Shown here: positions 1,169 through 35,977 of the stretch, in pieces
How the letters are laid out: the number at the start of each line of letters is the position of its first letter
Position numbering within the stretch: the stretch's first letter is position 1
DNA from: a virus
Virus record (IMG/VR): IMGVR_UViG_3300007516_000037
Coordinates: 1 to 43,630 of that record
Reading direction: 5' to 3' (one strand)
Length of the DNA: 43,630 nucleotides
Made by a program: the position numbers and the translations under genes
The notes under the pieces: generated by a model
What the model saw: the letters and a program-made list of their open reading frames with translations, nothing else
What the model was told of the DNA's origin: nothing
Databases searched by the model: none

Positions 1169-4100
1169 TTATTTTGACCCACTAAATAACCACAAATATT
1201 GACCAGTTGGGTCTTGCGTATTCCTACCAACAACATGATTAAATTTAGGTTTTTGATTTGATTTTATATTTCTGTTTTCTTTACTAACAAAACCACTCCC
1301 TTTTTCTGTTTCTAATTCTTGTGGACTTTGTTGAGCCCCAACCAACCAAGCGTTTAGTATAGCTTTATTTTGTTTCTCTAATCTTTCTAAGCTTTTAAAA
1401 GAATGTTCCATCACCCAAAGTACCATAGCTAAAGCCATGAGTAAATCATCATGAGCACCTTCAGCGTGGTCTGGCCTACCGTTTTTATAGATGAATGTTT
1501 TCATCTCAGATGTCATCCTAGCTGAACGTATTTTAACCCCGTTGGTTCTTATTTTGAATTCAAGATTTGAAATCATTGGTAAACGAACGGAAGTTGCGTG
1601 AAATCCTGGGGTTTTATTATCTTTATCGTAGTGAGTTAACTCTCTCTGTCTTGCAGATAAAATTTTACCGTTTTGATTATCATAATGTAATCTCTTATAT
1701 TCGAATTCCAATAATTTTAATACTGTTGGAACACCCATACCACCAGTAACATCAATAACTGAATATGCTTTATACATATTCCCGTATTCTTCAATTAATT
1801 GAGCTAGTAAATCTGGTGGAATTTTACCTTGATATTCCATAACTTGTTCCATCGTAGTAAAATCAATAATAACAATTGTTGATGAATCTTCCCCATCACC
1901 CCTTGCAACGTCAGAACCCAAAATATATTGATGTCCTTCTATTGGTAATTCCCAAATCCAAATTTCGTTTTTATTACCTTTGGTTGATATTGGGGTTTTT
2001 ACATTAAATTTATTTTGGTATTGAATATATTTTTCATCGATGATATTACCACCAGAACCAATAAATGAAACATCTAATTCTTGTGCAATCATTTTTGCGT
2101 CATTATTCATACCACGAGCCATGTCTTCATACCATGTAGATGTTGGTTTCCAGTTGTCTAGTATTCTTGCATCGTATGATTCGAATGTGAATTCTGTTTC
2201 TGCTTCAACTATATCACCCCCTTCACCCTCAGTTTCTTTAATCCATCTTAAATCTTTATTATAACGTAAATCTTCATACCATTTCATTTCAATGATATTA
2301 AAATCGTTCTTACCCTTCCTAGCTAAATCGTATGTTGCGTAATATAACATATCCATACCGTTAGGTGTTGATATAAGTATCGCTTTACCCCCAGTATTAT
2401 GGCTTATAATACCATTTGAAATAAATGAATTCGTTTCTGGTACGTGTAAATCATAAGTATAATCTTCCGATTCATCAATAGAAATTATTTCATCAATATA
2501 AAATAATTCTTGTTTTTTTATATCTTCTTTTAATGATAATAAAAAAACATCGTTAGGTAATAATTCTATTAAACGATTTAATGAATCAACACTTAATCTA
2601 TTAAATTTTGATACCCAAAATCTTTCTAAAAACCTAAATTTAGGTTTTAATATACCGTTATTTTTTAATACTTCTAATATTTCATTTTGGTTAACATTAA
2701 CAAACCTTGAATTTTGTTTTTTGTTTAATAAATATTCTCTATTTTTTTGTTTTCTTTCTAACCTAAAACCTATTTCATCATAAAATTTTATAGCGTAATT
2801 TGAATATATTTTTAAATTATAAATTTTACAAATATGTTTTTTATTTGATATTATAGATGAATCAGAAGTTTTTTGTTCTTCGTATTTAATATGTGATACA
2901 ATACCAAAATTAAGTAATAATGTTTGTAATGTTTTTATTAATTTTTTTGATGTACTAGAATATTTAATATCTTTATGAGTTGACATACCATCACCATCAA
3001 ACATACCTTGTAAAAATGATTTTATAACATTTTTAGGCATTTTTAATAACGCTAAAGGTATTTCTTTATCTCTAGCATTATGTTTATCTAAACCAAATTT
3101 TTTAAACCAAGCTACCAACTCTGTTGAGTGGAATTGATAATGTCTGTCATCTATTTTATTAAAAGAGTTACCTAATTTAGCTTTATCAGTTAATAAAAAA
3201 TCAGTTATATATTCATCAGTGTTTGTTATACAAATACCTCTACTAGTAAAATTACCTTCAGCAACGAATAACCCTAGTAAATAAGAAAAATCTAAATTAT
3301 CACTTAAATTCTTCGGTATAAAAATATTTTTATTGTTTGGTTGTTTTACAAATGAAAAGTCAAAATTACCATTATTACCAAAATATTGTTGACCATATTG
3401 AATTATTGGTTTATCACCAATAATTAATTCATTCATACGCACCCAAATCTCGGTACCACCCCTATCTATTAAAATAGGGTGTTTCCAACTACCTTCTAAT
3501 TCAATACCTAATTTTGTTTTTATCTTAAAAGTTTGTCCGTATTCACTAACAAATGTTTCTGTAGCGTTAACTATATTACCATCCTTATTACAAACCTTGT
3601 GTGGGATATCTAAATGAGTAAAACCTATTTTTTCTTTTTCGGAAACTAATTCATCCATTTCAACCAAACCATTTTCAGTTAATATTAATGAATCTTTAGT
3701 TAAACAACCCAAAGCGGTAAACGCTGCACCAAAAACTACAGCTCCGTTATCGATGTACGCAGCCTCATCCATTATAAGATACGTTGGTGTAAAACCACGC
3801 AAAGCATCTTTAGATGTCGCAACAGCTTTAACTCTACTTCCGTTCGGTAATCTTATTTCTTTTTTGGAGTCAACTAAAAAAATAGATTTAGCTTCATTTT
3901 TTGGGTTACCATAATATTCAGAACCCCAAACCCATCTAGGTAGTTGACTTAAGAAATCTTTTATTTTAGCTAAAAATTCAAAAGCTAATTCTTGTTTATT
4001 CGCAATAATTAGAACCGCTTCTGGGTTATCTTCATCAGCAAAACCAACTTTCATTGACATATAAGCCGCTGTCGTTGTTGAAACACCAGCTTGTCTGGGT

Positions 4101-4285
4101 TTTGTTACTAAATTATGTCTATATTTTTCGTATCCGTAAATTATCTCTTTTTGTCTAGGGAATAAATTAAACGGAACAAAACCTTCTTGGGTCTTATCAA
4201 AAGTTTCTAAATAAGTTTCTATACCATAAATTGGATTGGTCAAACATTTGGCAAATTCCTTAAATATTTCAATAGTTGTTAACAT
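1169..4285 (-). CDS. Terminase large subunit (T4 gp17-like) with in-frame intein
   Basis: ATP-driven DNA-packaging motor and headful nuclease. The N-terminal ATPase has a deviant Walker A (KPRQAGVSTTTA, about residues 62-73) and Walker B (YLIMDEAAYID, about 169-179). After the intein come the coupling motif (TGGKAILISTPNG) and an RNase H-like nuclease with acidic residues in GSDVARGDGEDSS, SVIDVTGG and HDDLLMALAM. The ORF is 1038 codons. Removing residues 194-630 leaves about 601 residues, close to T4 gp17. An ATATTTAT box lies 11 nt before the ATG (4297-4304, minus sense). A palindromic terminator separates it from the gene upstream. Confidence 0.95.
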   Translation of the reverse strand: MLTTIEIFKEFAKCLTNPIYGIETYLETFDKTQEGFVPFNLFPRQKEIIYGYEKYRHNLVTKPRQAGVSTTTAAYMSMKVGFADEDNPEAVLIIANKQELAFEFLAKIKDFLSQLPRWVWGSEYYGNPKNEAKSIFLVDSKKEIRLPNGSRVKAVATSKDALRGFTPTYLIMDEAAYIDNGAVVFGAAFTALGCLTKDSLILTENGLVEMDELVSEKEKIGFTHLDIPHKVCNKDGNIVNATETFVSEYGQTFKIKTKLGIELEGSWKHPILIDRGGTEIWVRMNELIIGDKPIIQYGQQYFGNNGNFDFSFVKQPNNKNIFIPKNLSDNLDFSYLLGLFVAEGNFTSRGICITNTDEYITDFLLTDKAKLGNSFNKIDDRHYQFHSTELVAWFKKFGLDKHNARDKEIPLALLKMPKNVIKSFLQGMFDGDGMSTHKDIKYSSTSKKLIKTLQTLLLNFGIVSHIKYEEQKTSDSSIISNKKHICKIYNLKIYSNYAIKFYDEIGFRLERKQKNREYLLNKKQNSRFVNVNQNEILEVLKNNGILKPKFRFLERFWVSKFNRLSVDSLNRLIELLPNDVFLLSLKEDIKKQELFYIDEIISIDESEDYTYDLHVPETNSFISNGIISHNTGGKAILISTPNGMDMLYYATYDLARKGKNDFNIIEMKWYEDLRYNKDLRWIKETEGEGGDIVEAETEFTFESYDARILDNWKPTSTWYEDMARGMNNDAKMIAQELDVSFIGSGGNIIDEKYIQYQNKFNVKTPISTKGNKNEIWIWELPIEGHQYILGSDVARGDGEDSSTIVIIDFTTMEQVMEYQGKIPPDLLAQLIEEYGNMYKAYSVIDVTGGMGVPTVLKLLEFEYKRLHYDNQNGKILSARQRELTHYDKDNKTPGFHATSVRLPMISNLEFKIRTNGVKIRSARMTSEMKTFIYKNGRPDHAEGAHDDLLMALAMVLWVMEHSFKSLERLEKQNKAILNAWLVGAQQSPQELETEKGSGFVSKENRNIKSNQKPKFNHVVGRNTQDPTGQYLWLFSGSK
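2396..3706 (-). other. Terminase intein with LAGLIDADG endonuclease domain (437 aa)
   Basis: It starts at Cys194 (CLTKDSLILTENGLVEMDEL) and ends with ISHN before Thr631, so all splice-junction residues are present: Cys1, penultimate His, final Asn, +1 Thr. A block-B-like SWKH is near the N-terminus. Two LAGLIDADG helices are visible (YLLGLFVAEGNF and FLQGMFDGDGMS), so the homing endonuclease looks intact. It interrupts the ATPase just before the ISTPNG coupling motif. Terminase should be inactive until the intein splices out. Confidence 0.93.
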
Positions 4286-9249: not shown

Positions 9250-9816
9250 TTAATTTACTATTGTTAAATTTCCATAAAAAGCTTGAAGGGGATTACCAAA
9301 ACCTTTCCAAGTTACTTTGTAAACATAAATATCGTTTTGAACTATTATAGGTTTTCCTAGATAAGTTCCATCCCAAAATCCTTTAGGGTTATGAGATTCG
9401 AAAATAAGTTCTCCCCATCTATTAAATATCAAAACTTCTATTTCTTCCCACCCGTCACCGATAGGGAACCAAGTATCGTTTAACCCATCACCGTTAGGTG
9501 TAAAAGCAGAAGGTATGTAAATCGTTGAACATTCTGTTACAATTATTGTGTAACGTAACGTTAATGAACGACATCCATTTGCTATTCCAAAAACAGTTAA
9601 TGTGTATGTTCCAATCCCATATTCAGTCCAATCAATAATGACTTTCTGACCATATAATTGTTCTTTACCCAATTCCCAATAAAATGTTGTGTTTGGGACG
9701 CTGGAGGTTACTGTATACGTAAATTCTGAATTCTTATTCAAACACAAATCAATTACTTGTTGTGATGATAGAAGGTTTGATATTAATAGAAATAGAGTTA
9801 CATACAGAAGTTTCAT
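9250..9816 (-). CDS. Secreted protein with type IX secretion (gliding-motility type B) C-terminal domain
   Basis: 188 aa. The N-terminal signal peptide is MKLLYVTLFLLISNLLSSQQ. An Ig/PKD-like strand region follows (FTYTVTSSVPNTTFYWELGK). From about residue 97 the C-terminus matches the CHU_C / gliding-motility-associated sorting domain: IYIPSAFTPNGDGLNDTW, then IEVLIFNRWGELIFES, then GFWDGTYLGKP and DIYVYKVTWKG. In Bacteroidetes this domain sends proteins through the T9SS to the cell surface. The start overlaps the upstream stop (ATGA), indicating translational coupling. The gene sits between structural and nucleotide genes of a phage, so it presumably targets the host surface or the virion. 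Confidence 0.85.
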   Translation of the reverse strand: MKLLYVTLFLLISNLLSSQQVIDLCLNKNSEFTYTVTSSVPNTTFYWELGKEQLYGQKVIIDWTEYGIGTYTLTVFGIANGCRSLTLRYTIIVTECSTIYIPSAFTPNGDGLNDTWFPIGDGWEEIEVLIFNRWGELIFESHNPKGFWDGTYLGKPIIVQNDIYVYKVTWKGFGNPLQAFYGNLTIVN

Positions 9817-10376
9817 CAGTTGTGTGAGATGTTTAACAAGATTGGGGTTGGATTAACCACAAAGTTGTTAACAGTCGTGGTAAACACGCACCCATCAACT
9901 GTTACTGTATAAGTCACAGAGCTAGTTCCAGCAGTTGTCGGACAAAACTCTCCGTTAACTACGTTAACACCAGACCATACACCACCAGTTGGTGAACCGA
10001 CAAGTGGTTCGCAAGGTTCTCCCTCACAAAAACTCGCCAGAACAATCGTTGGAGCTACGTTATAGATTAGCACATTTAAAAATACAATACCACTGATACA
10101 TCCGTCTGCACTGGTAGCAAAAACGCTAATAGCGTTATTGATTAAACCAGCTGGTTCAGTACTCCAATCAACAGAGATTTGGTTTGTTCCTTGACCAGAT
10201 AATAAACTTCCAGTTGTGGTCCATGTATAACTATGTCCAGCAGTGTTTGCTACCTCATAAGTTGATGGATTTGTTGAATTGATACAAACTGTATCGGGGT
10301 TAAATGTTGTTAATTGCGCTATCGAAATCAAAGGCAGAAACATTATTAAAAGTAAAACTAGTTTTTTCATAATCAT
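9816..10376 (-). CDS. Secreted Ig/PKD-like protein
   Basis: 186 aa with a signal peptide (MKKLVLLLIMFLPLISIAQ; the start could be 10376 or the second Met at 10370). The rest is beta-rich, with Ig/PKD-like patterns seen in Bacteroidetes surface proteins: HSYTWTTTG..LSGQGTNQISVDW and GGVWSGVNVVNGEFCPTTAGTSSVTYTV. It lacks its own T9SS domain. The stop TGA overlaps the start of the T9SS-domain gene. An ATATTTAT box lies at 10383-10390. Confidence 0.8.
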   Translation of the reverse strand: MIMKKLVLLLIMFLPLISIAQLTTFNPDTVCINSTNPSTYEVANTAGHSYTWTTTGSLLSGQGTNQISVDWSTEPAGLINNAISVFATSADGCISGIVFLNVLIYNVAPTIVLASFCEGEPCEPLVGSPTGGVWSGVNVVNGEFCPTTAGTSSVTYTVTVDGCVFTTTVNNFVVNPTPILLNISHN

Positions 10377-13193: not shown

Positions 13194-13225
13194 ATTGTTT
13201 GATTGAAAATAATATAGTATATTTG
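13194..13225 (+). promoter_or_regulatory. Promoter of the ClpC N-half gene
   Basis: Bacteroidetes-type promoter: ATTG at 13194-13197, a 20-nt spacer, TATATTTG at 13218-13225, and ATG 12 nt later. It matches the geometry of the promoter at 16,575-16,605. It decides the ATG at 13238 over the upstream TTG at 13199. Confidence 0.6.
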
Positions 13226-13237
13226 TACAAAGAAGCT

Positions 13238-15037
13238 ATGCAAAGAGAAGTATTTCCAAAAGTAAAAGTGATTATGTCTAAATCAATGAAAGAAGCCAAA
13301 TCTTTTAACGATACCAAACTTAGGCCAGAACATATAGTGATGTCAATGTTAGTTGATGACGACAATGAGGTTGTTAAAGTTCTTAAGAGATTAAAAGTCG
13401 ATACCAAGGACCTTTATGCTAGGATACATGAGTACATAAGAAAAGTGGATTTAACACCTAGAATTGGTAATAATAGAAAAGCTTTACCTTTTTCTGATGA
13501 AACAACAATCGTTATGAAATCTGTTGACAATGAATGCGCTATCTTAAACCATAATATGATTGATACAACACATATTATGTTATCGATTTTGTCAAAGTCA
13601 CTACCAACAACCGAAATCCTTAGGGAAACATATAAAGTAAATTATAATAGTTTTAAAAAAATGATGAAAGAAATGGATGGCGATTTTAACGCATATGAAG
13701 GTGATGAAATGCCCGATGATGAATTACCTAAAAAGAAAAGTAAATTTACTGACACCAAAAGTAAAACAGCTGTTTTAGATAACTTCTGTAGAGATATATC
13801 GAAAGCTGTTGAAAAAGGTGAAATAGACCCAGTTGTTGGGCGTTCAGTTGAAATAAAAAGGCTTTCTCAAATCTTATCAAGGAGAAAGAAAAACAACCCA
13901 ATCCTTATCGGTGAACCAGGTGTCGGAAAAACTTCCATAGTAGAAGGTCTCGCTCAACTAATCAAAGATGGTGAAGCTCCAAGAACTCTTATTAATAAAA
14001 GAATCTTTACCTTGGATTTAGCCTCAGTAGTAGCTGGTACAAAATATCGTGGTCAGTTTGAAGAGCGAATGAAGGCAATATTAGAAGAATGTAAAGCAAA
14101 CACAGATGTGATTTTATTTATCGATGAATTACATACAATCGTTGGTGCTGGAAACTCTTCTGGGTCACTTGATGCTTCTAACATTTTCAAACCAGCATTG
14201 GCTAGGGGTGAAATTCAAATAATTGGTGCAACCACATTAGATGAATATCGTGAAAATATTGAAAAAGATGGAGCCTTGACAAGACGATTCCAACAAATTT
14301 TAGTTGAAGAACCAACACTGGCTGAAACTAAAATAATACTTATGAATATCAAGGAAAAATATGAAAAACATCATAAGGTAATATACAGTGAAGAAGCTAT
14401 TGATGAGTGTGTTAAATTATCTGCTCGTTACATAATGGATAGAAGTATGCCCGATAAAGCGATTGACGTTATGGATGAAGCTGGTGCAAGCACCAATGTT
14501 AGTGTTGAAAAACCAGAAGAAATAAAAATTCTGGAAGAAAAGAAAAGAATACTTATCGAGAAGAAAAAAGATGTTGTTCAAAAACAAAAATATGAAGAGG
14601 CTGCTAAGATTCGCGATGATGAGAAACAAGTTATTAGTGATTTAAAAATTGCGATGGATTCTTGGGGAAATGAACTAGAAAATAAAACAACCGAAATCGG
14701 TGTGGAAATAATTTCAGAAATTGTTTCAATAATGACTGGAATTCCTTTAACCAAAATATCAACTCAAGAAAGCAAACGTCTTATCAACATGGATAAGGAA
14801 CTTATGGGTAAAATTATTGGCCAAGATGCGGCTGTTGAAAAAGTTGTTAAATCAATTAAACGTAATCGTATCGGTATCAAAGATAAAAACAAACCAGTTG
14901 GTTCTTTTATTTTCTTAGGCCCTACTGGAGTTGGTAAGTGTTTTTGTTCTGATACTCAGATAGTTATAAGAAATAAAACTACTGGTTTAGTTGATAATAT
15001 TAATATAGATGAATTGAAAACTAGAATAAAACATTAA
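13238..15037 (+). CDS. clpC: ClpC-like AAA+ ATPase, N-terminal fragment fused to a split-intein N segment
   Basis: About 567 residues of extein plus 32 of intein. Order: Clp N domain; first AAA+ domain with Walker A GEPGVGKTS and Walker B VILFIDELHT; a UVR-like middle segment (QKQKYEEAAKIRDDE) typical of ClpC; and the beginning of the second AAA+ domain, ending GPTGVGK. Clp ATPases unfold proteins for refolding or proteolysis. The frame stops after the 32-residue intein N segment; the rest of the ATPase is encoded at 16,618. Function needs protein trans-splicing of the two polypeptides. No ClpP partner is seen in the window. Confidence 0.9.
   Translation: MQREVFPKVKVIMSKSMKEAKSFNDTKLRPEHIVMSMLVDDDNEVVKVLKRLKVDTKDLYARIHEYIRKVDLTPRIGNNRKALPFSDETTIVMKSVDNECAILNHNMIDTTHIMLSILSKSLPTTEILRETYKVNYNSFKKMMKEMDGDFNAYEGDEMPDDELPKKKSKFTDTKSKTAVLDNFCRDISKAVEKGEIDPVVGRSVEIKRLSQILSRRKKNNPILIGEPGVGKTSIVEGLAQLIKDGEAPRTLINKRIFTLDLASVVAGTKYRGQFEERMKAILEECKANTDVILFIDELHTIVGAGNSSGSLDASNIFKPALARGEIQIIGATTLDEYRENIEKDGALTRRFQQILVEEPTLAETKIILMNIKEKYEKHHKVIYSEEAIDECVKLSARYIMDRSMPDKAIDVMDEAGASTNVSVEKPEEIKILEEKKRILIEKKKDVVQKQKYEEAAKIRDDEKQVISDLKIAMDSWGNELENKTTEIGVEIISEIVSIMTGIPLTKISTQESKRLINMDKELMGKIIGQDAAVEKVVKSIKRNRIGIKDKNKPVGSFIFLGPTGVGKCFCSDTQIVIRNKTTGLVDNINIDELKTRIKH
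14939..15034 (+). other. Split-intein N segment (IntN, 32 aa)
   Basis: Immediately after GPTGVGK the frame reads CFCSDTQIVIRNKTTG..NINIDEL and stops. This is block A of an intein (Cys1, D-T, V-I-R-N-K-T-G). The break falls between Lys and Thr of the second Walker A motif, so the unspliced protein cannot bind nucleotide there. The very short IntN places it among the atypically split inteins, where the break is near the N-terminus. Confidence 0.9.
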
Positions 15038-15121
15038 CTAATACCAGTTCAACTTAAAAAAAGTCATTAACCAGTTGACTTATTATAAAGTTTGTTATAT
15101 TTATTATTAAACATAATAGAT

Positions 15122-16597
15122 ATGCAAATTTTAAAAGAAAGAAAAAAAAGAGAGGTTAGTGAAATTTTTAAAACACAAGATGAGTTTATCACTTATTTAA
15201 GTGAAATTAATGATAAGATAAATTTTTCAAACCAAACAATGATAAACAAAATTAATAACATTTATAATATTATGTTAACTGATGAGGGTGTTATTCAATG
15301 GAATAGATTTGACCGATGGTTACCAAGTAAATTTGGTTTTAAAAAATCTAATCTATTGAAACTTGAATTTTGGTTAGAACGTGGCTGGACTAGTGATGAG
15401 GGGCGTAGAAAAATTAGTTTAATAACTAGTGAAAGAGCTAATAAAGCTATCAAAACTAAATCTGATAAAAAAAAAGAAATTATTTTTAATAATCTTGAAA
15501 CAATAAAATTTAATGGTGTAGTATTCACTAGTGCTGATATTCCTAAATGTGGAAAATGTAAAAATAATTTAGAATTAACGAAGATAAATATTTGTAATAA
15601 AAATGATGAATATTATTATAAAATAATTAAATGTTCGAATCTTAATTGTGGTACACATAAAGAAAAAACTCGTGATTTATATCGTTCTTTTTTGCCACAT
15701 GATATTGGTGAAAAAAAAATAAAAGATGTAAGGGAAAATATAAAAAGTAGTAGTGTATTATCTATTGATTCTTGGTTAAAAAATGGTTATTCTGTAGATG
15801 AAGCAAATAAAAATATATCCGATATTCAATCGAATAAATCATTATTGGTTAAAAATAGGTTTATTGTTAGTAAAGAAAACTTGAAGGTTAACGGTTACTC
15901 CGAAAGTGAGATAAAAGACATTTGCAAAACACCAACTCAAATTGAGTTTTGGGTTGATAAGGGGTATAATGAGGCTGAAGCTAAAGAAAAGGTGCGTGAT
16001 AATCAATTAAACGCTATAAAATATATTGATTATGATAAAAGGTTATTACCATCTAATTTAGAATATTGGATTAATTTAGGTTTTACTTATGAACAAAGTA
16101 AAGAAAAAATAAAAGAAAGACAAACAACCTTTAGTTTAGATATATGTATTCAAAAATATGGTGAAATTAATGGGTTAAATAAGTTTAATGAAAGACAGAT
16201 AAAATGGTTAACTAACTATAAAAGGAGTAATTTTAGTAAAATATCTCAAGAATTATTCTGGGGTGTATTAAATAAAGAATTTATTGATGGTGAATTATAT
16301 TTTGCAACTTATAACAATGGTTCTAATGATGAAAGTGGTAAAAATAATGAATATAGATTGAGGTTAGATAATGGGGTTATATTACCAGATTTTTTTTTAA
16401 AAAATAAAAAAAGAATAATCGAATTCGATGGTACTTATTATCATAGAAATACACCAGAAAACAATCTTAGAGAAGATAAAAGAGATAAAATGATAATAGA
16501 ATCTGGGTATGATGTATTACATATAAATGAATCAGATTATAAAAAAAATAAACAAGAAATGATAAATAAATGTATTGAATTTTTAAATAAAAAATAG
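15122..16597 (+). CDS. Free-standing homing endonuclease (Vsr-like, EDxHD type)
   Basis: 491 aa, ATG at 15122. The N-terminal two thirds carries four spaced repeats of the form E/S-FW-L-x-x-G-W/Y-T-x-DE-A (LEFWLERGWTSDEGRRK, IDSWLKNGYSVDEANK, IEFWVDKGYNEAEAKEK, LEYWINLGFTYEQSKEK). A zinc-ribbon-like CGKC...CSNLNC lies after the first. The C-terminal ~110 residues read as a Vsr/PD-(D/E)XK-like nuclease: NGVILPDFFLKNKKRIIEFDGTYYHRN...RDKMI...VLHINESDY. It lies between the two halves of a gene broken by a split intein, the arrangement known for 'fractured genes'. An ATATTTAT box is 17 nt upstream (15097-15104). Confidence 0.85.
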   Translation: MQILKERKKREVSEIFKTQDEFITYLSEINDKINFSNQTMINKINNIYNIMLTDEGVIQWNRFDRWLPSKFGFKKSNLLKLEFWLERGWTSDEGRRKISLITSERANKAIKTKSDKKKEIIFNNLETIKFNGVVFTSADIPKCGKCKNNLELTKINICNKNDEYYYKIIKCSNLNCGTHKEKTRDLYRSFLPHDIGEKKIKDVRENIKSSSVLSIDSWLKNGYSVDEANKNISDIQSNKSLLVKNRFIVSKENLKVNGYSESEIKDICKTPTQIEFWVDKGYNEAEAKEKVRDNQLNAIKYIDYDKRLLPSNLEYWINLGFTYEQSKEKIKERQTTFSLDICIQKYGEINGLNKFNERQIKWLTNYKRSNFSKISQELFWGVLNKEFIDGELYFATYNNGSNDESGKNNEYRLRLDNGVILPDFFLKNKKRIIEFDGTYYHRNTPENNLREDKRDKMIIESGYDVLHINESDYKKNKQEMINKCIEFLNKK

Positions 16598-16605
16598 TAT
16601 CTTTG
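16575..16605 (+). promoter_or_regulatory. Promoter of the IntC-ClpC C-half gene
   Basis: TTG at 16575-16577, 20-nt spacer, perfect TATCTTTG at 16598-16605, which begins right after the endonuclease stop codon. The ATG follows 12 nt later. The C-half can therefore be transcribed independently of the endonuclease gene. Confidence 0.6.
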
Positions 16606-16617
16606 TTAATAAAAAAA

Positions 16618-17262
16618 ATGAAAAAAGAAATTAAAGTAGACGAGACATATAACCTAGATTTAGGTTCAACACCTGTAAATGTGACGGTAATCGAATTAAA
16701 AGATAATGGTGTGTTATGTAAATATAATAATTCATACGCAAATAGATTTGAAACATTAGATTATGAATTGTTTGAAATGAATGGGTTTATTAAACCATTA
16801 AATAGGGTAGAAGAAATAGAAAAAAGAGTTGGTGATAATGTTTTATTATTTAATAAACATGAGTTTGAATCATTAAAAAAAATAACAAAAACTACTAAAG
16901 TAACTGATTATGAGGTATTAACTGATGAAGGGTTTGTTGATATAGAAGCGTTACATGAAACAATACCTTATGAAGTATATCAACTTAGGTTGAGTGATGG
17001 AAAAGAGCTTAAATGTGCTGATAACCATATTGTATTTAAACAAAACTACAATGAAGAAAATTTTGAAAAAGATGGTTTAATAGAGGTCTTTGTTAAGGAT
17101 TTAAAAATTGGTGATTTTATTTGTGTTAACGAAAATAATTTATTATCCGAAACAGAAGTTATAGAATTAACTAATTTAGGTTATGAAGAAATAATGTACG
17201 ACCTTGAACTAAAAAAAGATTCTAATATGCGATATTATACAAATGGTATATTATCACATAAT
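16618..17262 (+). other. Split-intein C segment (IntC, 215 aa) with extra N-terminal domain
   Basis: The Hint core runs from about residue 97: VTDYEVLTDEGFVDIEAL, EVYQLRLSDGKELKCADNHIVF (block B His), VKDLKIGDFICV, EEIMYDLELKKDSNMRYYTNGILSHN (blocks F and G with His-Asn) before +1 Thr. The first ~90 residues (ETYNLDLGSTPVNVTVIELKD...NRFETLDYELFEMNG) do not look like intein. They resemble a small beta-barrel add-on of unknown role. Confidence 0.88.
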
Positions 17263-18057
17263 ACTATGTTGGCTAAGTTATTAGCTGAACAAGTTTTTGG
17301 AGATTCGGATGCTTTGATTAGAATGGATATGTCTGAATATATGGAGAAACATTCGGTATCTAAATTAATTGGTTCACCGCCTGGATATGTTGGTTATGAA
17401 CAAGGTGGTCAATTAACTGAAAAAGTTAGAAGAAAACCACACTGTGTTATTCTATTTGATGAAATTGAAAAAGCACATGAAGACGTATTTAACGTTCTTT
17501 TGCAATTACTTGATGAAGGGCAATTAACTGATGGGTTAGGTCGTAAAGTAAATTTCAAAAATGCTTTGATTATTCTAACTTCTAATATCGGAGTTAGAGA
17601 AGTTAATTCATTCGGAAAAGGGTTGGGTTTTGAAACACCTACAAATATGCTGAACGAGGAAAATAAAGCGCGAGAGATAATTGAGAAAGCTTTAAAAAAG
17701 AAGTTTAGACCAGAATTCCTTAACCGTATAGACGAAGCTATAGTTTTTAGACCTCTAAACGAAGGAGATATACATAAAATTATATTTCTTGAAGTTAAAA
17801 ACCTTGAGAAACGTCTATTGGAGATGAATTTCAAACTTAAAATAAGTGACGAAGCTGTAAAATATTTGGCCAAACAAGGTTATGACGAAGCTTATGGGGC
17901 GAGACCTCTAGCTAGAGCAATTCAACACTATGTTGAAGATGCTATTGCGGATGAGATTCTTAACGAAAAGATTACCGAAGGTGAGACAATCAACATAGGG
18001 TTTGACCCCGACAAAGAAGTTATAACCATAGAAAGTGATGGAATAATTTCAAAATAA
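16618..18057 (+). CDS. clpC: Split-intein C segment fused to the ClpC C-terminal half
   Basis: ATG chosen at 16618; an in-frame TTG at 16603 lies within the -7 promoter box. Residues 1-215 are intein (separate entry). Residues 216-479 complete the second AAA+ domain: Thr of the Walker A followed by MLAKLLAEQVFG, then SPPGYVGYEQGGQLTEKVRRKPHCVILFDEIEKAH (pore loop and Walker B), TSNIG and FRPEFLNRIDE, and the Clp D2 small domain ending YGARPLARAIQ. N- and C-exteins sum to about 831 residues, a normal ClpC length. This supports a functional spliced product rather than a pseudogene. Confidence 0.9.
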   Translation: MKKEIKVDETYNLDLGSTPVNVTVIELKDNGVLCKYNNSYANRFETLDYELFEMNGFIKPLNRVEEIEKRVGDNVLLFNKHEFESLKKITKTTKVTDYEVLTDEGFVDIEALHETIPYEVYQLRLSDGKELKCADNHIVFKQNYNEENFEKDGLIEVFVKDLKIGDFICVNENNLLSETEVIELTNLGYEEIMYDLELKKDSNMRYYTNGILSHNTMLAKLLAEQVFGDSDALIRMDMSEYMEKHSVSKLIGSPPGYVGYEQGGQLTEKVRRKPHCVILFDEIEKAHEDVFNVLLQLLDEGQLTDGLGRKVNFKNALIILTSNIGVREVNSFGKGLGFETPTNMLNEENKAREIIEKALKKKFRPEFLNRIDEAIVFRPLNEGDIHKIIFLEVKNLEKRLLEMNFKLKISDEAVKYLAKQGYDEAYGARPLARAIQHYVEDAIADEILNEKITEGETINIGFDPDKEVITIESDGIISK

Positions 18058-18058: not shown

Positions 18059-18087
18059 AAAAGGCCCATTTTTTTGGGCCTTTTTTT
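18059..18087 (+). terminator. Terminator after clpC C-half
   Basis: Stem AAAGGCCCA/TGGGCCTTT with a T-rich loop followed by seven T, starting 1-2 nt after the stop codon. Strong intrinsic terminator form. Confidence 0.9.
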
Positions 18088-21827: not shown

Positions 21828-23252
21828 TTAACTTATGATTGTTTCTGGTAACAACCGTTTTAATTTTTGATAATTTTCTGCTCCTATTTGTTCTTCTTTT
21901 ACCGCCAGTCTATATAGCGACCCACCATTGCTTTTATCTAAATACTTAATCTCAGATGGAAAGTCTTTTATTTGGTTGCCCGTTACATTAAGAAAGGTTA
22001 AGTTTTTAAGCTGACCTATTTCAACTGGTAATGTTTTAATGTTGTTATTCGTTAAGACCAATATATTAAGTGTATTTAAGTTACATACAGACGGATGTAA
22101 TTCCACCAACTTAGCGTCAGTGATAATTAATTGGTCAATATTTTTAAATCTATTCATATCTGGTAACTTAGGTATTTCTCTTTTCATTATCTTTATAGAT
22201 GGTGTATCTATTGGAAACATTTCAAATAAGCTTTCGGAAAAACCGAATTTTATTAAACTGTCTAAATATTTGTTTTGGTCAATTCCTTGCTTAAACTCTT
22301 TAGCCATTTTCATTAATGTCTCGTAAAAATAAATACTCAAACTTTCGCTTTCCGACAAAATATTCTCATATATGTTTACGTTCGAAGAATTACTTTTGTT
22401 TTTTATTTGATTTGTTTCAAAATGAATTTGATAAATTTCTTCCGATTCACCAGTGAAAAATTTGTTATCTACTATAATATAAATATCTGAATTTTCACCG
22501 TTAGGTTTTTTATTCCTAGTTGTGTAACTATTAAACATACCATTACCTTTCTTTGCTGTACACCAGTTGGCAAAATTATCAAAAACAACATTAGCCTCAG
22601 TAGTCTTTGGAATGAATAACGTGAATTTTCTATCCTTTACTGGTATTAAAGCTTGGCCAGAATCAACAAATTTTTGCATGGTCCGTTCAACAGCACTTGG
22701 CTCTTTTTCAATAAATGGGTCTACAGCATCAAATAATTGAGATAACGATTTAAACTGATTGATATTTGTTGGGTCGATAATTTGTTTAAGACTATAAGTT
22801 GAAAGACATAATTCTTTAAATTTTTTCTTTCGTTTATTTTCTTCAAATAAAACCAGATAAGAACTAGCTTGAGGTAAATCTTCTTCAACAAACCTAATGG
22901 CAGATAATATATTGGTTTTCTCACCAAATCTCAAAAATCTACTAAATACAGTTAACATCCACTGTAAATAAATCTTATTTTCCGTTGGGTCTGACACTAT
23001 CATATCGGTAAAAACTTCAGAACAAATACTAATGTGTTTTAAAATACGATTTTTTTCATTCACTTTGGTGGAAATAATAGCCATCACTTTCCCGTTAGTG
23101 GTAGATACCAACTGTGGTGTATAACCAGCTTCCGTCATTTCAAGAACTTTATTATCAGCACTGGAACCCCCAGTATTGTCAAGGCCACACTCAAAAATAT
23201 CAAAACTTTCAGCTAAAAATGTTAAACGGTCTGTTACACTAATTTCTTTCAT
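21828..23252 (-). CDS. Leucine-rich repeat protein with a 'WCTA' domain, 474 aa
   Basis: The C-terminus (about 365-455) has LRR units: LPDMNRFKNIDQLIITDAKL, LHPSVCNLNTLNILVLTNNNI, LPVEIGQLKNLTFLNVTGNQI and FPSEIKYL. The middle has TLFIPKTTEANVVFDNFANWCTAKKGNGMFNSY...IYIIVDNKFF...YQIHFET. This resembles an uncharacterised module I associate with phage proteins. The N-terminal 200 residues are helical. LRRs suggest protein binding, possibly a host target. It sits alone with its own terminator. Confidence 0.75.
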   Translation of the reverse strand: MKEISVTDRLTFLAESFDIFECGLDNTGGSSADNKVLEMTEAGYTPQLVSTTNGKVMAIISTKVNEKNRILKHISICSEVFTDMIVSDPTENKIYLQWMLTVFSRFLRFGEKTNILSAIRFVEEDLPQASSYLVLFEENKRKKKFKELCLSTYSLKQIIDPTNINQFKSLSQLFDAVDPFIEKEPSAVERTMQKFVDSGQALIPVKDRKFTLFIPKTTEANVVFDNFANWCTAKKGNGMFNSYTTRNKKPNGENSDIYIIVDNKFFTGESEEIYQIHFETNQIKNKSNSSNVNIYENILSESESLSIYFYETLMKMAKEFKQGIDQNKYLDSLIKFGFSESLFEMFPIDTPSIKIMKREIPKLPDMNRFKNIDQLIITDAKLVELHPSVCNLNTLNILVLTNNNIKTLPVEIGQLKNLTFLNVTGNQIKDFPSEIKYLDKSNGGSLYRLAVKEEQIGAENYQKLKRLLPETIIS

Positions 23253-32986: not shown

Positions 32987-33529
32987 TTAACGAATTATTT
33001 TGTACGTTTCATTCTGAAAGCTCAACTCCAAAACATTTTTAAGATACAATTTTCTCCAAAAAATCTCTCGTTCAGTTCCTTGATTTTCAGCACTAGCCTG
33101 CACTGGTAAGTAGTCAACCAATTCAGATTTATTTTTTCTTATGCCGTCAGCGAAATATTCAGTTTCAGGCTTGCTATTATCATTCGGACGATATTGTAAA
33201 ACAAACTCACCTTTGAACGTTCCAATAAAATTATTGTTCTCGCCAAACTCGATAGGCATCGTATTAACGCCTTTTTTGTACTCGGTGGACTCTTTGCCTT
33301 CGCGACCTAATTGATTCGTTACAGCCTTCTCATATTCGCTATTAAGCAGTATTGACACCTTTGAAACCTTTACGATTTTACCGTATGGATTTTTTTCGCC
33401 CGTAGTGCGACTTTTTACAGTTACTTTAGGCTCTGTTTGCTGAAGCACTGAAGCAAATGTAGGCATTCCTTTGACAAGTTCAACACTAGTAAGGATAGCA
33501 GCAAGTTCTTTTTCTGTTACACGTTTCAT
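32987..33529 (-). CDS. Hypothetical early protein, 180 aa
   Basis: Starts MKRVTEKELAAILTSVELVKGMPTFASVLQQTEP and contains TTGEKNPYGKIVKVSKVSILLNSEYEKAVTNQLGREG and FIGTFKGEFVLQYRPND. Beta-rich and basic. It recalls early proteins of other flavobacterial phages but I know no function. It is the largest gene of the early array. Its early promoter is at 33559-33589. Confidence 0.75.
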   Translation of the reverse strand: MKRVTEKELAAILTSVELVKGMPTFASVLQQTEPKVTVKSRTTGEKNPYGKIVKVSKVSILLNSEYEKAVTNQLGREGKESTEYKKGVNTMPIEFGENNNFIGTFKGEFVLQYRPNDNSKPETEYFADGIRKNKSELVDYLPVQASAENQGTEREIFWRKLYLKNVLELSFQNETYKIIR

Positions 33530-33558
33530 AATTTCTGTTTTTAGATTGATTGATAAGA

Positions 33559-33589
33559 CAAAGATAGTTAAAAAATTGACACCACCAAA
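33559..33589 (-). promoter_or_regulatory. Early promoter, class A
   Basis: Minus-strand TTTG (33586-33589), 19 nt, TATCTTTG (33559-33566), with the conserved spacer start GTGGTGTC. Drives the 180-aa gene. Confidence 0.8.
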
Positions 33590-33761
33590 TTTATTTTCAC
33601 TTTATTTTATTTTTATTTTGGGATGTTCTAAACGTTTGAACAGTGCAAATATGATAATAATAATTGATATATCCTAATATTGTTTATTAACAAGTTATTA
33701 ACAAATTGACTTTTTGACAATTCCTAATTTTGTTGATAACTTTTTTTATTTGAGGGTTAAA

Positions 33762-33825
33762 AAAATATAAGGTAGGCTGGAGTATACTCTCTCACCTCGT
33801 CAGCGACCCGTTCACCAATTGAACA
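33762..33825 (-). ncRNA. Structured small RNA, copy 1
   Basis: Follows an early promoter with the hairpin GUUCA-AUUGG-UGAAC at the predicted 5' end (33810-33824). Next come GGGU, a short hairpin (UCGC/GUGA) and GAGUAUACUCC, where GGGU can pair with ACUC. Nearly identical to copy 4 on the other strand. No ORF is carried. The 3' end is only estimated from a T-rich stretch. Confidence 0.65.
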
Positions 33826-33828
33826 ATA

Positions 33829-33859
33829 CAAAGATAGTAAAAAATTCGACACCACCAAA
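33829..33859 (-). promoter_or_regulatory. Early promoter, class A, of small RNA copy 1
   Basis: TTTG (33856-33859), 19 nt, TATCTTTG (33829-33836) on the minus strand. The T-tract of the preceding terminator leads straight into it. Confidence 0.8.
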
Positions 33860-33865
33860 TAAAAA

Positions 33866-33895
33866 GGCATAAAAAAATCCCTTTCGGGACTTTTT
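33866..33895 (-). terminator. Terminator after the Lys/His-rich protein gene
   Basis: Minus-strand GTCCC-GAAA-GGGAT hairpin with A- and T-runs on either side, just after the stop at 33904. Confidence 0.85.
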
Positions 33896-33903
33896 TTTTA
33901 TGT

Positions 33904-34143
33904 TTAACGTTTGTGGTTTGGATGTGCTTTTAAGCCTCTACAACCGTGACCAACAAGCCCTTTTTTCTTTGCAGCTTTGCTCTTCTTGTGGCTCTTCTTG
34001 TGGCTCTTCTTCTTGTGGTTCTTCTTCTTTGGTTTGCGGTCAGACATTTCGTACTGACTTTTGATGTTTAAGGTTTCAAAAGTTGATGCGTTAACGTTTG
34101 CACCGAAAATTGTGATAAGCAGTAAAAAGATTAAGTTTTTCAT
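33904..34143 (-). CDS. Secreted Lys/His-rich basic protein, 79 aa
   Basis: Signal peptide MKNLIFLLLITIFGANVNAS, then a strongly basic mature part with repeated KKSHKKSHKKSK and a Cys/His tail GHGCRGLKAHPNHKR. Similar short basic exported proteins occur in flavobacteria, so it may be host-derived. Its charge suggests binding to nucleic acid, envelope polymers or metal (inference). Confidence 0.7.
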   Translation of the reverse strand: MKNLIFLLLITIFGANVNASTFETLNIKSQYEMSDRKPKKKNHKKKSHKKSHKKSKAAKKKGLVGHGCRGLKAHPNHKR

Positions 34144-34176
34144 AGGTTTTTTTGTTTTTGTTTGTTTTTGTTAAGA

Positions 34177-34207
34177 CAAAGATAGTTAAAAAATCGACAC
34201 CACCAAA
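34177..34207 (-). promoter_or_regulatory. Early promoter, class A
   Basis: TTTG (34204-34207), 19 nt, TATCTTTG (34177-34184) on the minus strand, for the Lys/His-rich protein gene. Confidence 0.8.
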
Positions 34208-34219
34208 TTTATTTTCATT

Positions 34220-34294
34220 TTATTTTAAGTAGGTGTAAATACACAATGCGAATAAAATAAAAGCTTCTTTGAGGTCTTTAAGGAAAAGTTTCAT
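34220..34294 (-). CDS. Tiny hydrophobic protein, 24 aa
   Basis: Short ORF MKLFLKDLKEAFILFALCIYTYLK, 17 nt after an early promoter. A single hydrophobic segment suggests a membrane peptide. Supported only by promoter position and composition. Confidence 0.45.
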   Translation of the reverse strand: MKLFLKDLKEAFILFALCIYTYLK

Positions 34295-34311
34295 AGTTTG
34301 TTTTGATAAGA

Positions 34312-34342
34312 CAAAGATAGTCAAAAAATCGACACCACCAAA
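34312..34342 (-). promoter_or_regulatory. Early promoter, class A
   Basis: TTTG (34339-34342), 19 nt, TATCTTTG (34312-34319) on the minus strand, upstream of the 24-aa ORF. Confidence 0.8.
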
Positions 34343-34343
34343 T

Positions 34344-34517
34344 TTATTTTGATAATTCTTTGCCGTAAAATACGTTCAATATAAACGCCCATATTCCAAA
34401 AGCTATGCATAGCAATGTAGAATACATAAAACCATTTAGATTTAAAGTAGCTATAAAATAAGCTACAAAAACTAATGCAATGGCAAACAAGTTGAGGGAT
34501 ACTTTGAGTAAGTTCAT
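34344..34517 (-). CDS. Small membrane protein, 57 aa
   Basis: ATG chosen at 34517 (MNLLKVSLNLFAIALVFVAYF). The longer frame reads through the promoter box. Two hydrophobic segments (LFAIALVFVAYFIATL and YSTLLCIAFGIWAFILNVF) predict a two-pass membrane protein. Confidence 0.65.
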   Translation of the reverse strand: MNLLKVSLNLFAIALVFVAYFIATLNLNGFMYSTLLCIAFGIWAFILNVFYGKELSK

Positions 34518-34546
34518 AATTTCTGTTTTTAGATTGATTGATAAGA

Positions 34547-34577
34547 CAAAGATAAGCAAAAAATCGACACTACCAAA
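34547..34577 (-). promoter_or_regulatory. Early promoter, class A
   Basis: TTTG (34574-34577), 19 nt, TATCTTTG (34547-34554) on the minus strand. Drives the 57-aa membrane protein gene. Confidence 0.8.
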
Positions 34578-34584
34578 TTTATTT

Positions 34585-34671
34585 TCAATAAAATATCCAA
34601 GAACTAAAATAAAATAACGTGAATAGGACTACTAAAAATATACCACCTAAAAAGACTTCTTTTTTGTTCAT
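34585..34671 (-). CDS. Tiny membrane protein, 28 aa
   Basis: MNKKEVFLGGIFLVVLFTLF... with one hydrophobic span. Its ATG overlaps the stop of the 50-aa gene (ATGA), so it is probably translated by coupling. Third gene of a three-gene mini-operon. Confidence 0.5.
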   Translation of the reverse strand: MNKKEVFLGGIFLVVLFTLFYFSSWIFY

Positions 34672-34820
34672 GGGTAAAAGTCTAATAACATTTTATTTGC
34701 TCTCAAAGCTGCTGTAAGGTTAAAAATAGGGCAAGTAGTATCTTTCTTATTAACTATTCCAGCTGCGATAATGGCTCTAACTATTTGAGGTCGCATATTG
34801 ATTCTTGTATGTAAGTTCAT
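34668..34820 (-). CDS. Small hypothetical protein, 50 aa
   Basis: Starts MNLHTRINMRPQIVRAIIAAG. A short helical protein with one Cys (KDTTCPIFN). It starts 3 nt after the stop of the 47-aa gene and overlaps the 28-aa gene, so it sits in the middle of a mini-operon. Confidence 0.5.
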   Translation of the reverse strand: MNLHTRINMRPQIVRAIIAAGIVNKKDTTCPIFNLTAALRANKMLLDFYP

Positions 34821-34823
34821 AAT

Positions 34824-34967
34824 TTATTTATTTGCTGCTGTCCATAGCTTCTTAACGATTTCTTTGAAATGAAGGTTACAATTTCTCTTGATTATTTTCA
34901 AGTCGCTTGCATCAAGCTCCCAGGGAACCCAAACTGAGCATACCATAATTAACGTTTCGATAGTCAT
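34824..34967 (-). CDS. Small hypothetical protein, 47 aa
   Basis: Starts MTIETLIMVCSVWVPWELDA, then a basic helix SDLKIIKRNCNLHFKEIVKKLW. First gene of the mini-operon behind the promoter at 34991. The leader (CATAATTTCTTTGTGTTTGAT on the plus strand) is shared with other early genes, which supports the start. Confidence 0.55.
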   Translation of the reverse strand: MTIETLIMVCSVWVPWELDASDLKIIKRNCNLHFKEIVKKLWTAANK

Positions 34968-34990
34968 AATTTCTTTGTGTTTGATTAAGA

Positions 34991-35021
34991 CAAAGATAAG
35001 CAAAAAATCGACACCACCTAA
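34991..35021 (-). promoter_or_regulatory. Early promoter of the three-gene mini-operon
   Basis: TATCTTTG (34991-34998) with the class A spacer. The upstream box is TTAG rather than TTTG. Confidence 0.7.
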
Positions 35022-35049
35022 TTTTAAACGTTATTTAGATTGATTATAA

Positions 35050-35120
35050 ATAAGGTAGACTATAAAGTAGGTCGGAGTATACCTTTCGATTTAAAAATCG
35101 ACTCGTTCACCAATTGAACA
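35050..35120 (-). ncRNA. Structured small RNA, copy 2
   Basis: Same 5' hairpin GUUCA-AUUGG-UGAAC (35105-35119). The second hairpin is the longer UCGAUUU/AAAUCGA, followed by AAGGUAUACUCCGACC. GAGU here pairs with ACUC, where copies 1, 3 and 4 have GGGU. The 3' end is uncertain. Confidence 0.65.
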
Positions 35121-35123
35121 AGA

Positions 35124-35173
35124 CAAAGATAGTAAAAAAATCGACACCACCAAATGATAATGTCGATTTTTTG
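35124..35173 (-). promoter_or_regulatory. Overlapping terminator and early promoter (small RNA copy 2)
   Basis: TTTG (35151-35154), 19 nt, TATCTTTG (35124-35131). The spacer also forms the 3' arm of a hairpin (35135-35145 with 35162-35172, TGTCGATTTTT) that has terminator form for the gene at 35182. One segment thus serves as both terminator and promoter. Confidence 0.75.
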
Positions 35174-35181
35174 ATTTATTT

Positions 35182-35436
35182 TTAATCCTCAAACTCACCA
35201 ATAAAAAGTTTACCATCTTGAAATGTTGGCTCATATTCTTTGTGCGAAGCTTTCATATCGTCAGTTTCCATAAAGCCGCTGTAAGCCATTAATTTTAACT
35301 CGTGGCAACATACTAGCACTTCGGCTGTATCACCCTTTGTAGGATGCTCTAAGAAGTCAATTTCTTGACCTAATGAATTGGTCATCTTCTCGTATGAAGT
35401 CGGGTTCATCGCCATTATTTTTTCGTAGCTTATCAT
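35182..35436 (-). CDS. Hypothetical early protein, 84 aa
   Basis: MISYEKIMAMNPTSYEKMTNSLGQEIDFLEHPTKG, then EVLVCCHELKLMAYSGF. Small acidic protein, no family recognised. Class A promoter at 35466-35496. Confidence 0.7.
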   Translation of the reverse strand: MISYEKIMAMNPTSYEKMTNSLGQEIDFLEHPTKGDTAEVLVCCHELKLMAYSGFMETDDMKASHKEYEPTFQDGKLFIGEFED

Positions 35437-35465
35437 GGTATATGTTTTTAGATTGATTGATAAGA

Positions 35466-35496
35466 CAAAGATAGTTAAAAAATCGACACCACCAAA
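35466..35496 (-). promoter_or_regulatory. Early promoter, class A
   Basis: TTTG (35493-35496), 19 nt, TATCTTTG (35466-35473) on the minus strand, for the 84-aa gene. Confidence 0.8.
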
Positions 35497-35528
35497 TTTA
35501 TTTTCATTTTATTTTATTTTGTTTTTTA

Positions 35529-35559
35529 TTTGGTAGTTCGGAATTTTTGTTTATCTTTA
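35529..35559 (+). promoter_or_regulatory. Promoter of small RNA copy 3
   Basis: Plus-strand TTTG (35529-35532), 19 nt, TATCTTTA (35552-35559). The final G is replaced by A. Confidence 0.65.
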
Positions 35560-35563
35560 CAGT

Positions 35564-35640
35564 GTTGAATCAGTCAGGTCAACGGGTCGATTTTTAAATC
35601 GAAAGGTATACTCCGACATGGCTTATATTTTGCCATGAAA
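35564..35640 (+). ncRNA. Structured small RNA, copy 3
   Basis: 5' hairpin GUUGA...UCAAC (35564-35583): compared with copies 1, 2 and 4 the C-G pair has become G-C, a compensatory change. Then GGGUCGAUUU...AAAUCGAAAGG and UAUACUCCGAC as in copy 2, and a hairpin AUGGC/GCCAU at the 3' end. Confidence 0.7.
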
Positions 35641-35649
35641 TAAAAGGAA

Positions 35650-35678
35650 AAAAAGATTTGGAAATACCAAATCTTTTT
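35650..35678. terminator. Bidirectional terminator
   Basis: AAAAAGATTTGG / CCAAATCTTTTT stem with a 5-nt loop. It can end small RNA copy 3 on the plus strand and the 35,689 gene on the minus strand. Confidence 0.85.
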
Positions 35679-35688
35679 CTTATCTTTG

Positions 35689-35895
35689 TTAATTGTATTG
35701 ATTGGCGACTCTGAATGCTTCTGTTGCTTCTGAGGTGAATTCTTGTTCGGTCATTGCCAAGTATTCATTTTTAACTTCGGCATCAAACCACAATGAAAGA
35801 TTATTATTGCTTTCATCGCTAATGTTAAATAACCCTTGACCTGCAAGGTTACCTTCATTCAATGTAATTTGCCCGACTGTTCTTAAAATTTTCAT
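35689..35895 (-). CDS. Hypothetical early protein, 68 aa
   Basis: MKILRTVGQITLNEGNLAGQGLFNISDESNNNLSLWFDAEVKNEYLAMTEQEF. Acidic, no family recognised. Class A promoter at 35918-35949. Confidence 0.65.
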   Translation of the reverse strand: MKILRTVGQITLNEGNLAGQGLFNISDESNNNLSLWFDAEVKNEYLAMTEQEFTSEATEAFRVANQYN

Positions 35896-35917
35896 GGTTT
35901 GTTTGTTTTTGATAAGT

Positions 35918-35949
35918 CAAAGATAAGTAAAAGAATCGACACCACCAAA
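35918..35949 (-). promoter_or_regulatory. Early promoter, class A
   Basis: TTTG (35946-35949), 20 nt, TATCTTTG (35918-35925) on the minus strand, for the 68-aa gene. Confidence 0.8.
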
Positions 35950-35977
35950 TTTATCTTCATTTTAATTTCCCATGTAC

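What the first reader, a model, noticed from the sequence alone, without database searches (positions are those of the whole stretch)
13238..18057. ClpC-like gene fractured by a split intein, with a free-standing homing endonuclease between the halves
The first ORF ends GPTGVGK plus a 32-residue intein N segment. The second starts with an intein C segment ending ILSHN, followed by Thr-MLAKLLAEQ. The break lies between Lys and Thr of the second Walker A motif. A Vsr-like endonuclease gene sits in the gap. This is the 'fractured gene' arrangement described for helicase, NrdA/NrdJ and IMPDH genes in environmental sequence. I do not recall it in a Clp ATPase. The two exteins add up to a normal 831-residue ClpC, so trans-splicing should rebuild a working unfoldase.
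Basis: partly seen in the sequence, partly recalled or inferred. Interest (0 to 1): 0.85.

Follow-up and report, generated by a model that had tools for sequence, protein, structure and literature searches.

The report
Phage ClpC gene split by intein
A phage gene for a ClpC protein-unfolding motor is cut in two inside an ATP-binding loop by a split self-splicing element, with its DNA-cutting 'homing' enzyme between the halves; close relatives break the same gene at both ATP-binding loops, so one protein would be stitched from three separately made pieces.

Summary
ORF1 (13238-15037) is ClpC residues 1-567 ending GPTGVGK plus a 32-aa IntN. ORF3 (16618-18057) is an IntC ending ILSHN plus ClpC residues 568-831. 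An I-Bth0305I/Vsr-type endonuclease gene lies between (15122-16597). The arrangement recurs in 25 distinct viral contigs (window included); 44 intein-free relatives give exact empty alleles: in one pair at 87-93% DNA identity, 2,476 nt sit exactly between the AAA and ACA codons. The intein is of the N-terminally ('atypically') split kind (Cat, VidaL, AceL/GOS-TerL); the same family sits at the GK|T/S of Walker A in TerL, DnaB-like helicases and AAA ATPases. New here: ClpC as host, and relatives in which a homologous split intein also breaks the first Walker A. Three contigs hold all three pieces; four more are broken at both Walker A motifs, with the set incomplete or not fully traced. Lower synonymous divergence in the intein than in the exteins, and patchy distribution, argue for homing. 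Splicing itself is inferred, not shown. I judge it a new variant of a known kind; the window locus alone would be a new member.

The parts
13195..13225 (+). Bacteroidota-type promoter match (TTG-N20-TAnnTTTG), 12 nt before the ORF1 ATG
   Evidence: 25 matches in the window, 1.7 expected
13238..14938 (+). ClpC N-extein, 567 aa (N-domain, D1 AAA+, start of D2), ends GPTGVGK
13910..13933 (+). Intact D1 Walker A (GEPGVGKT): the site that is also fractured in relatives L005, L009, L013, L115
14939..15034 (+). IntN, 32 aa, Cys1; followed by TAA stop 15035-15037
   Evidence: family HMM 9e-17
15122..16597 (+). Free-standing Vsr/EDxHD-like homing endonuclease, 491 aa, with Zn-ribbon and repeated FWxxKGxSxxEAxxxIS motifs
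16415..16444 (+). Catalytic motif IIEFDGTYYH of the endonuclease; I-I-E, G and H invariant in 25 homologues
16575..16605 (+). Bacteroidota-type promoter match, 12 nt before the ORF3 ATG
16618..16893 (+). IntC leader: about 53 aa shared only with L003 and L008, then a conserved RVEEIEKR..LLFNKHEFESLKK linker
16894..17262 (+). IntC core, 123 aa: B block CADNH, F block YDLEL, G block ILSHN
17263..18054 (+). ClpC C-extein, 264 aa, starts with the Walker A Thr (+1 nucleophile); stop 18055-18057
17623..17631 (+). LGF tripeptide, ClpP-docking loop of ClpC/ClpA/ClpX type ([LMIV]G[FYL] in relatives)
   Evidence: function by family knowledge
18059..18084 (+). Intrinsic terminator-like hairpin after ORF3

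Best explanation
A phage ClpC unfoldase gene has been invaded, between the codons for Lys and Thr of its second Walker A motif, by a mobile split-intein element: IntN - free-standing Vsr-like homing endonuclease gene - IntC. The half-proteins are made as separate polypeptides. IntN (32 aa) docks into the partly folded IntC and a class-1-like Hint domain forms. Cys1 attacks, the +1 Thr of ExtC takes the chain, the terminal Asn cyclises, and the exteins join as GPTGVGK-TMLAK to give an 831-aa ClpC. The endonuclease would cut intein-free clpC alleles at the Walker A DNA and spread the whole block by recombination. Shown by sequence: anatomy, conservation, empty alleles, patchy distribution, lower dS in the intein. 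Inferred: splicing, DNA cleavage, and ClpC function with ClpP.
For: Catalytic residues conserved (A1/A7: C-A-D-x-H, S-H-N invariant; Cys1 in all listed IntN). Nearest solved structures by profile: gp41-1 6e-8, Cat 1e-7, VidaL 7e-6. AF2 model of the naturally contiguous homologue L062 (pLDDT 78, pTM 0.73) matches inteins throughout the 50 listed hits (VidaL TMt 0.83). Exact empty alleles: L006/L059 and window/L017. 25 split, 1 contiguous, 44 empty D2 sites interleaved on the ClpC tree, at least 8 gains/losses forced. dS lower in IntN and IntC than in the adjoining extein in 8/8 comparisons with the window (e.g. L005: IntN 0.115 vs ExtN 1.1), while IntC dN/dS is 0.10-0.28 and exteins 0.05-0.24 (all pairs share the window, so they are not independent). 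Endonuclease homologues in most gaps, also in TerL loci. No intron RNA. Promoter matches before both half-genes.
Against: No experiment. IntC alone scores below the Pfam intein cut-off (30.7 vs 35.8 bits). IntN pairwise dN/dS is about 0.3-1.2 over 32 codons, too few to show constraint. The endonuclease fold match has E 0.03 and a multi-domain model of pTM 0.33. The window contig is a 43.6-kb fragment with no reads available. ORF2 lacks a clear promoter match. Several relatives have lost all or part of the endonuclease, so activity in this copy is not certain.
Confidence: 0.93

Rival explanations
1. The halves work as a non-covalent 'gene in pieces' without splicing, as described for the phage Aeh1 NrdA (from memory).
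For: The endonuclease between halves resembles that case; both extein halves are under purifying selection.
Against: The break is inside the Walker A loop between Lys and Thr; both halves keep matching intein parts with all catalytic residues over 25 contigs.
Confidence: 0.03
2. A decayed intein: splicing is lost and this ClpC is dead or dispensable.
For: Inteins do decay; endonuclease remnants exist in relatives (L090, L004, and D1 of L005).
Against: All catalytic residues intact; exteins strongly constrained (dN/dS 0.05-0.24) and IntC constrained (0.10-0.28).
Confidence: 0.03
3. RNA-level or decoding-level joining (group I/II intron, frameshift, stop read-through).
For: Such phages often carry group I introns (PMC12363816, PMC7886860).
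Against: No Rfam intron match; the stop is TAA; gap not a multiple of 3; each half has IntN or IntC fused precisely at the splice junction; both half-genes have their own promoter match.
Confidence: 0.005
4. Assembly artefact joining two loci.
For: Single contig here, no reads available.
Against: Same arrangement in 24 other contigs; identical copies recovered under different IMG sample numbers (L010-L012, L014-L016, L090-L092/L113); the window's flanks are syntenic with intein-free L017.
Confidence: 0.005

Closest known systems
Atypically split TerL inteins AceL-TerL, GOS-TerL, consensus Cat (6DSL), VidaL (6VGV)
   Same: Very short IntN (25-37 aa in AceL/GOS, PMC11766414; 32 aa here) and long IntC; detectable sequence similarity to Cat and VidaL; relatives of our family sit in TerL itself.
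   Different: Host is ClpC; IntC is 215 aa with an extra leader (core 123 aa).
Fractured genes with split inteins and a free-standing Vsr-like endonuclease (Dassa et al. 2009: gp41 helicase, NrdA, NrdJ, IMPDH; paper not held, described from memory and from its citations)
   Same: Extein-IntN / endonuclease ORF / IntC-extein order; same endonuclease fold family.
   Different: New host gene; N-terminal split site; relatives fractured at two sites in one gene by homologous inteins.
PolB split intein of Pseudomonas jumbo phage MIJ3 (PMC6892783) and Aeromonas Aes123 PolB1 (9HTH)
   Same: Endonuclease homologous to ORF2 (26-30% identity) in these phages; in MIJ3 an endonuclease gene is reported between the PolB halves.
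   Different: Blocks A to N4 lie in IntN in MIJ3 (canonical split); host is PolB.
gp41-1 split intein (6QAZ)
   Same: Best profile match of IntC (6e-8).
   Different: gp41-1 is split at the canonical site (general knowledge).
I-Bth0305I catalytic domain (3R3P) and Vsr (1VSR)
   Same: First and fifth fold matches of ORF2; E-x-x-G-x-x-x-H core.
   Different: ORF2 N-terminal Zn-ribbon and repeat region have no solved match; target site untested.

Membership tests
Fractured gene with split intein | Host gene in two ORFs, each fused to one intein half | tested here: met
Fractured gene with split intein | Exact intein-free alleles exist | tested here: met
Fractured gene with split intein | Free-standing Vsr/EDxHD-like endonuclease gene between halves | tested here: met
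   (fold E 0.03, probability 1.00)
Fractured gene with split intein | Trans-splicing of the two products | not testable with these tools
   needs co-expression
Atypically (N-terminally) split intein | IntN of about 25-40 aa, block B onward in IntC | tested here: met
   IntN 28-38 aa in the ClpC D2 set; B block CADNH in IntC
Atypically (N-terminally) split intein | Sequence kinship to Cat / VidaL | tested here: met
   1e-7 and 7e-6; but gp41-1, canonically split, scores as well (6e-8)
Class 1 intein | Cys/Ser1, block B His, penultimate His-Asn, +1 Cys/Ser/Thr | tested here: met
   Cys1, CADNH, SHN, +1 Thr
ClpC-type HSP100 unfoldase | Clp_N, two AAA+ modules, D2-small domain | tested here: met
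ClpC-type HSP100 unfoldase | ClpP-docking [LIV]GF-type loop | tested here: met
   LGF at 17623-17631; [LMIV]G[FYL] in relatives
ClpC-type HSP100 unfoldase | UVR motif in the middle region | tested here: inconclusive
   PF02151 18.2 bits, cut-off 21.5
ClpC-type HSP100 unfoldase | ClpP partner in the same genome | tested here: inconclusive
   none in the 43.6-kb window; ClpP in 8 of 15 related records
Self-splicing RNA intron (rival) | Intron RNA structure in the gap | tested here: not met
   no intron family

The most novel reading that the evidence does not exclude
In relatives fractured at both Walker A motifs (L005, L009, L013 complete on the contig), three polypeptides must be joined by two homologous split inteins, and the middle piece is IntC(D1)-ClpC-IntN(D2), the layout that cyclises proteins. 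If the pairs are not fully orthogonal, phages would make alternative products at protein level: full ClpC, a form skipping D1 (IntN-D1 with IntC-D2) and a circular middle piece, in effect protein-level alternative splicing of an unfoldase.
Probability: 0.15. Interest if true: 0.88.

Novelty: new variant of a known kind. Interest (0 to 1): 0.63.

Why it matters
ClpC appears unreported as a split-intein host (no relevant paper in the held library; the held phage records show no intein-bearing ClpC among the best matches). Natural three-piece genes with two homologous split inteins give a ready set to test orthogonality, cross-splicing and how N-terminally split inteins avoid misassembly in a hexameric motor. 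About 30 contigs with full, shortened or absent endonuclease, plus a contiguous form and near-identical empty alleles, make the order of intein invasion, splitting and endonuclease loss testable. The sequences also add new short-IntN split inteins to protein-engineering tools.

Tried and rejected
Alignments mixing IntN rows with IntC rows (A2-A6) misplaced IntN; the structure was predicted from the naturally contiguous L062 homologue with, apart from one other contiguous row, IntC rows only (A7). IntN alone has no PDB match. A sigma-70 promoter scan was at chance; the Bacteroidota-type pattern was not. Intron, read-through, frameshift and assembly-error readings rejected as stated. An AU test does not reject a single origin of the D1 inteins (p 0.33), so two transfers from D2 to D1 are suggested, not shown. 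A promoter motif before other IntC ORFs was found in only 11 of 39. L106 was left out of the counts (its D2 IntN runs on into an unrelated reading frame at the contig end). L118 split status may rest on one frameshift. Two further viral scans returned almost only contigs already seen. Dassa 2009 could not be read.

Full report
WHAT IS THERE. ORF1 (13238-15037) encodes ClpC residues 1-567, ending in the D2 Walker A GPTGVGK, followed by a 32-aa IntN and TAA. ORF3 (16618-18057) encodes a 215-aa IntC ending ILSHN and ClpC residues 568-831. Pfam and PHROG matches place the two halves end to end: PHROG 4871 covers profile 5-510 in ORF1 and 510-757 in ORF3. The gap is 2,324 nt, not a multiple of three, with stops. 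ORF2 (15122-16597) fills it. The spliced sum is 831 aa. The D1 Walker A is intact in this virus. The window is an IMG/VR virus record of 43,630 bases.

IT IS NOT CHANCE OR AN ARTEFACT. A scan of viral contigs found 377 relatives of ORF3 (80 fetched) and a second scan, with the IntC alignment, 154 relatives (80 fetched). In 70 distinct contigs with a readable ClpC, the D2 site is split in 25 (window included), carries a contiguous intein in 1 (L062) and is empty in 44. Occupied and empty alleles are interleaved on the ClpC tree, with at least eight changes forced by well-supported branches (quick tree, SH-aLRT support only). L006 (occupied) and L059 (empty) are 87-93% identical in DNA over the flanks, and the 2,476-nt insert lies exactly between AAA and ACA; window against L017 shows the same. 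Identical copies occur under different IMG sample numbers. A scan of 84,980 bacterial and archaeal genomes gave one relative, a TerL locus on a 3.7-kb contig of a Prevotella MAG (TerL), so the family as sampled is essentially viral.

THE INTEIN. IntC cores from D1 and D2 share invariant C-A-D-x-H and I-L-S-H-N. Every IntN listed starts with Cys, and in the ClpC D2 set is 28-38 aa long. Profile searches of solved structures give gp41-1 (6e-8), the consensus atypical split intein Cat (1e-7) and VidaL (7e-6). The AlphaFold2 model of the natural contiguous form L062 (pLDDT 78, pTM 0.73) matches known inteins throughout the 50 listed hits, including VidaL (TMt 0.83), RadA and gp41-1. The IntN region of that model rests on two sequences. 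The short-IntN layout is that of AceL-TerL (25 aa) and GOS-TerL (37 aa) (PMC11766414). That review notes that such inteins need the N-extein to thread through IntC, a sharp constraint for a 567-aa N-extein.

THE ENDONUCLEASE. ORF2 has the motif IIEFDGTYYH; I-I-E, G and H are invariant in 25 homologues. The fold search ranks the I-Bth0305I catalytic domain first (probability 1.00, E 0.03) and Vsr fifth. Homologues lie in most split gaps in ClpC and in several TerL loci and, at 26-30% identity, in phages with PolB split inteins (MIJ3 in PMC6892783). Gaps of 455-621 nt (L118, L044, L101) have no endonuclease hit and L090 keeps 110 aa. In L005 a 49-nt stretch at the D1 site is 90% identical to the end of ORF2, a remnant. 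So the split persists after the endonuclease is lost.

SPREAD. dS between the window and eight relatives is lower in IntN (0.12-0.89) than in ExtN (1.1-2.9), and lower in IntC than in ExtC in all eight comparisons. IntC dN/dS is 0.10-0.28; exteins 0.05-0.24. The comparisons share the window and are not independent. This fits recent horizontal movement of a functional element.

ONE INTEIN FAMILY, MANY WALKER A MOTIFS. The same IntC family lies at GK|T or GK|S of TerL, DnaB-like helicases and AAA ATPases as well as ClpC D2 and D1. On the IntC tree, ClpC inteins group apart from the others with moderate support (91/77), and D1 inteins nest within D2 inteins in two places; one D1 origin is not rejected.

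THREE-PIECE ClpC. In L005, L009 and L013 a D1 split intein (GEPGVGK|T or GDPGVGK|T) accompanies the D2 one: piece 1 = N-domain + IntN-D1; piece 2 = IntC-D1 + middle + IntN-D2; piece 3 = IntC-D2 + ExtC. L013 has an endonuclease in both gaps. L115 shows both fractures but the contig ends before piece 3. L097 and L108 have the D1 fracture three residues earlier (GEPG|CGKT); L134 appears similar but its first piece was not traced. Within a genome D1 and D2 IntN are 34-47% identical (four genomes); the same site between genomes gives 54-79% (few pairs). That is consistent with, but does not show, orthogonal pairing.

EXPRESSION AND FUNCTION (inferred). TTG-N20-TAnnTTTG occurs 25 times in the window against 1.7 expected; one copy ends 12 nt before the ATG of ORF1 and another 12 nt before the ATG of ORF3. 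This pattern is the Bacteroidota promoter (general knowledge) and suggests that the halves are transcribed separately. The LGF loop suggests docking to ClpP; 8 of 15 related records encode ClpP, among them G012 (L122) and G011 (L121), whose ClpC is split at D2 (for L121 only the IntC half was identified).

LITERATURE. No held paper links inteins with ClpC in a relevant way. Split genes with inteins and endonucleases are common in large Bacteroidota phages (PMC12363816, PMC7886860). Three-segment trans-splicing has been engineered (PMC12707363). I cannot exclude an unheld report.

VERDICT. As a locus it is a new member of the fractured-gene, atypically split intein kind; with the two-fracture relatives I rate it a new variant.

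Noticed in passing
1172-4285 (-): TerL of the same virus carries a contiguous LAGLIDADG intein (about residues 194-633, FTALG|CLTKDS...IISHN|TGGKAIL); its Walker A is free.
   Followed up: partly
L010, L023, L031 (D1 site): An unrelated contiguous 364-aa intein with Ala at position 1 (AQPLDAKILTPNGW...YIVTHN) occupies the same GK|T of ClpC D1: two unrelated inteins chose one codon boundary.
   Followed up: no
L137, L140, L143, L144: TerL with two IntC-type junctions in separate ORFs (L137, L140) or three IntC-type junctions in one frame (L143, L144).
   Followed up: no
16618-16776: About 53 aa ahead of the IntC proper, shared only with L003 and L008; L004 and L122 have other leaders. Cargo at the free N-terminus of IntC would be removed on splicing. 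Function unexplained.
   Followed up: no
33500-43600 (-): Block of many small minus-strand ORFs, many preceded by TAAATTTG-N20-TATCTTTG promoter-like sites, like an early-gene region.
   Followed up: no
9253-9816 (-): Phage ORF with a CHU_C type IX secretion domain (Bacteroidota signature); neighbour 9819-10376 has a PKD-like domain.
   Followed up: no
41595-41669 and 41901-41975 (-): tRNA-Leu(caa) and tRNA-Met(cat) genes.
   Followed up: no
L106:7845-8357: D2 IntN runs on in frame into an unrelated coding sequence at the contig end, perhaps a deletion or fusion.
   Followed up: no
21831-23252 (-): Leucine-rich repeat protein of 474 aa in the phage.
   Followed up: no
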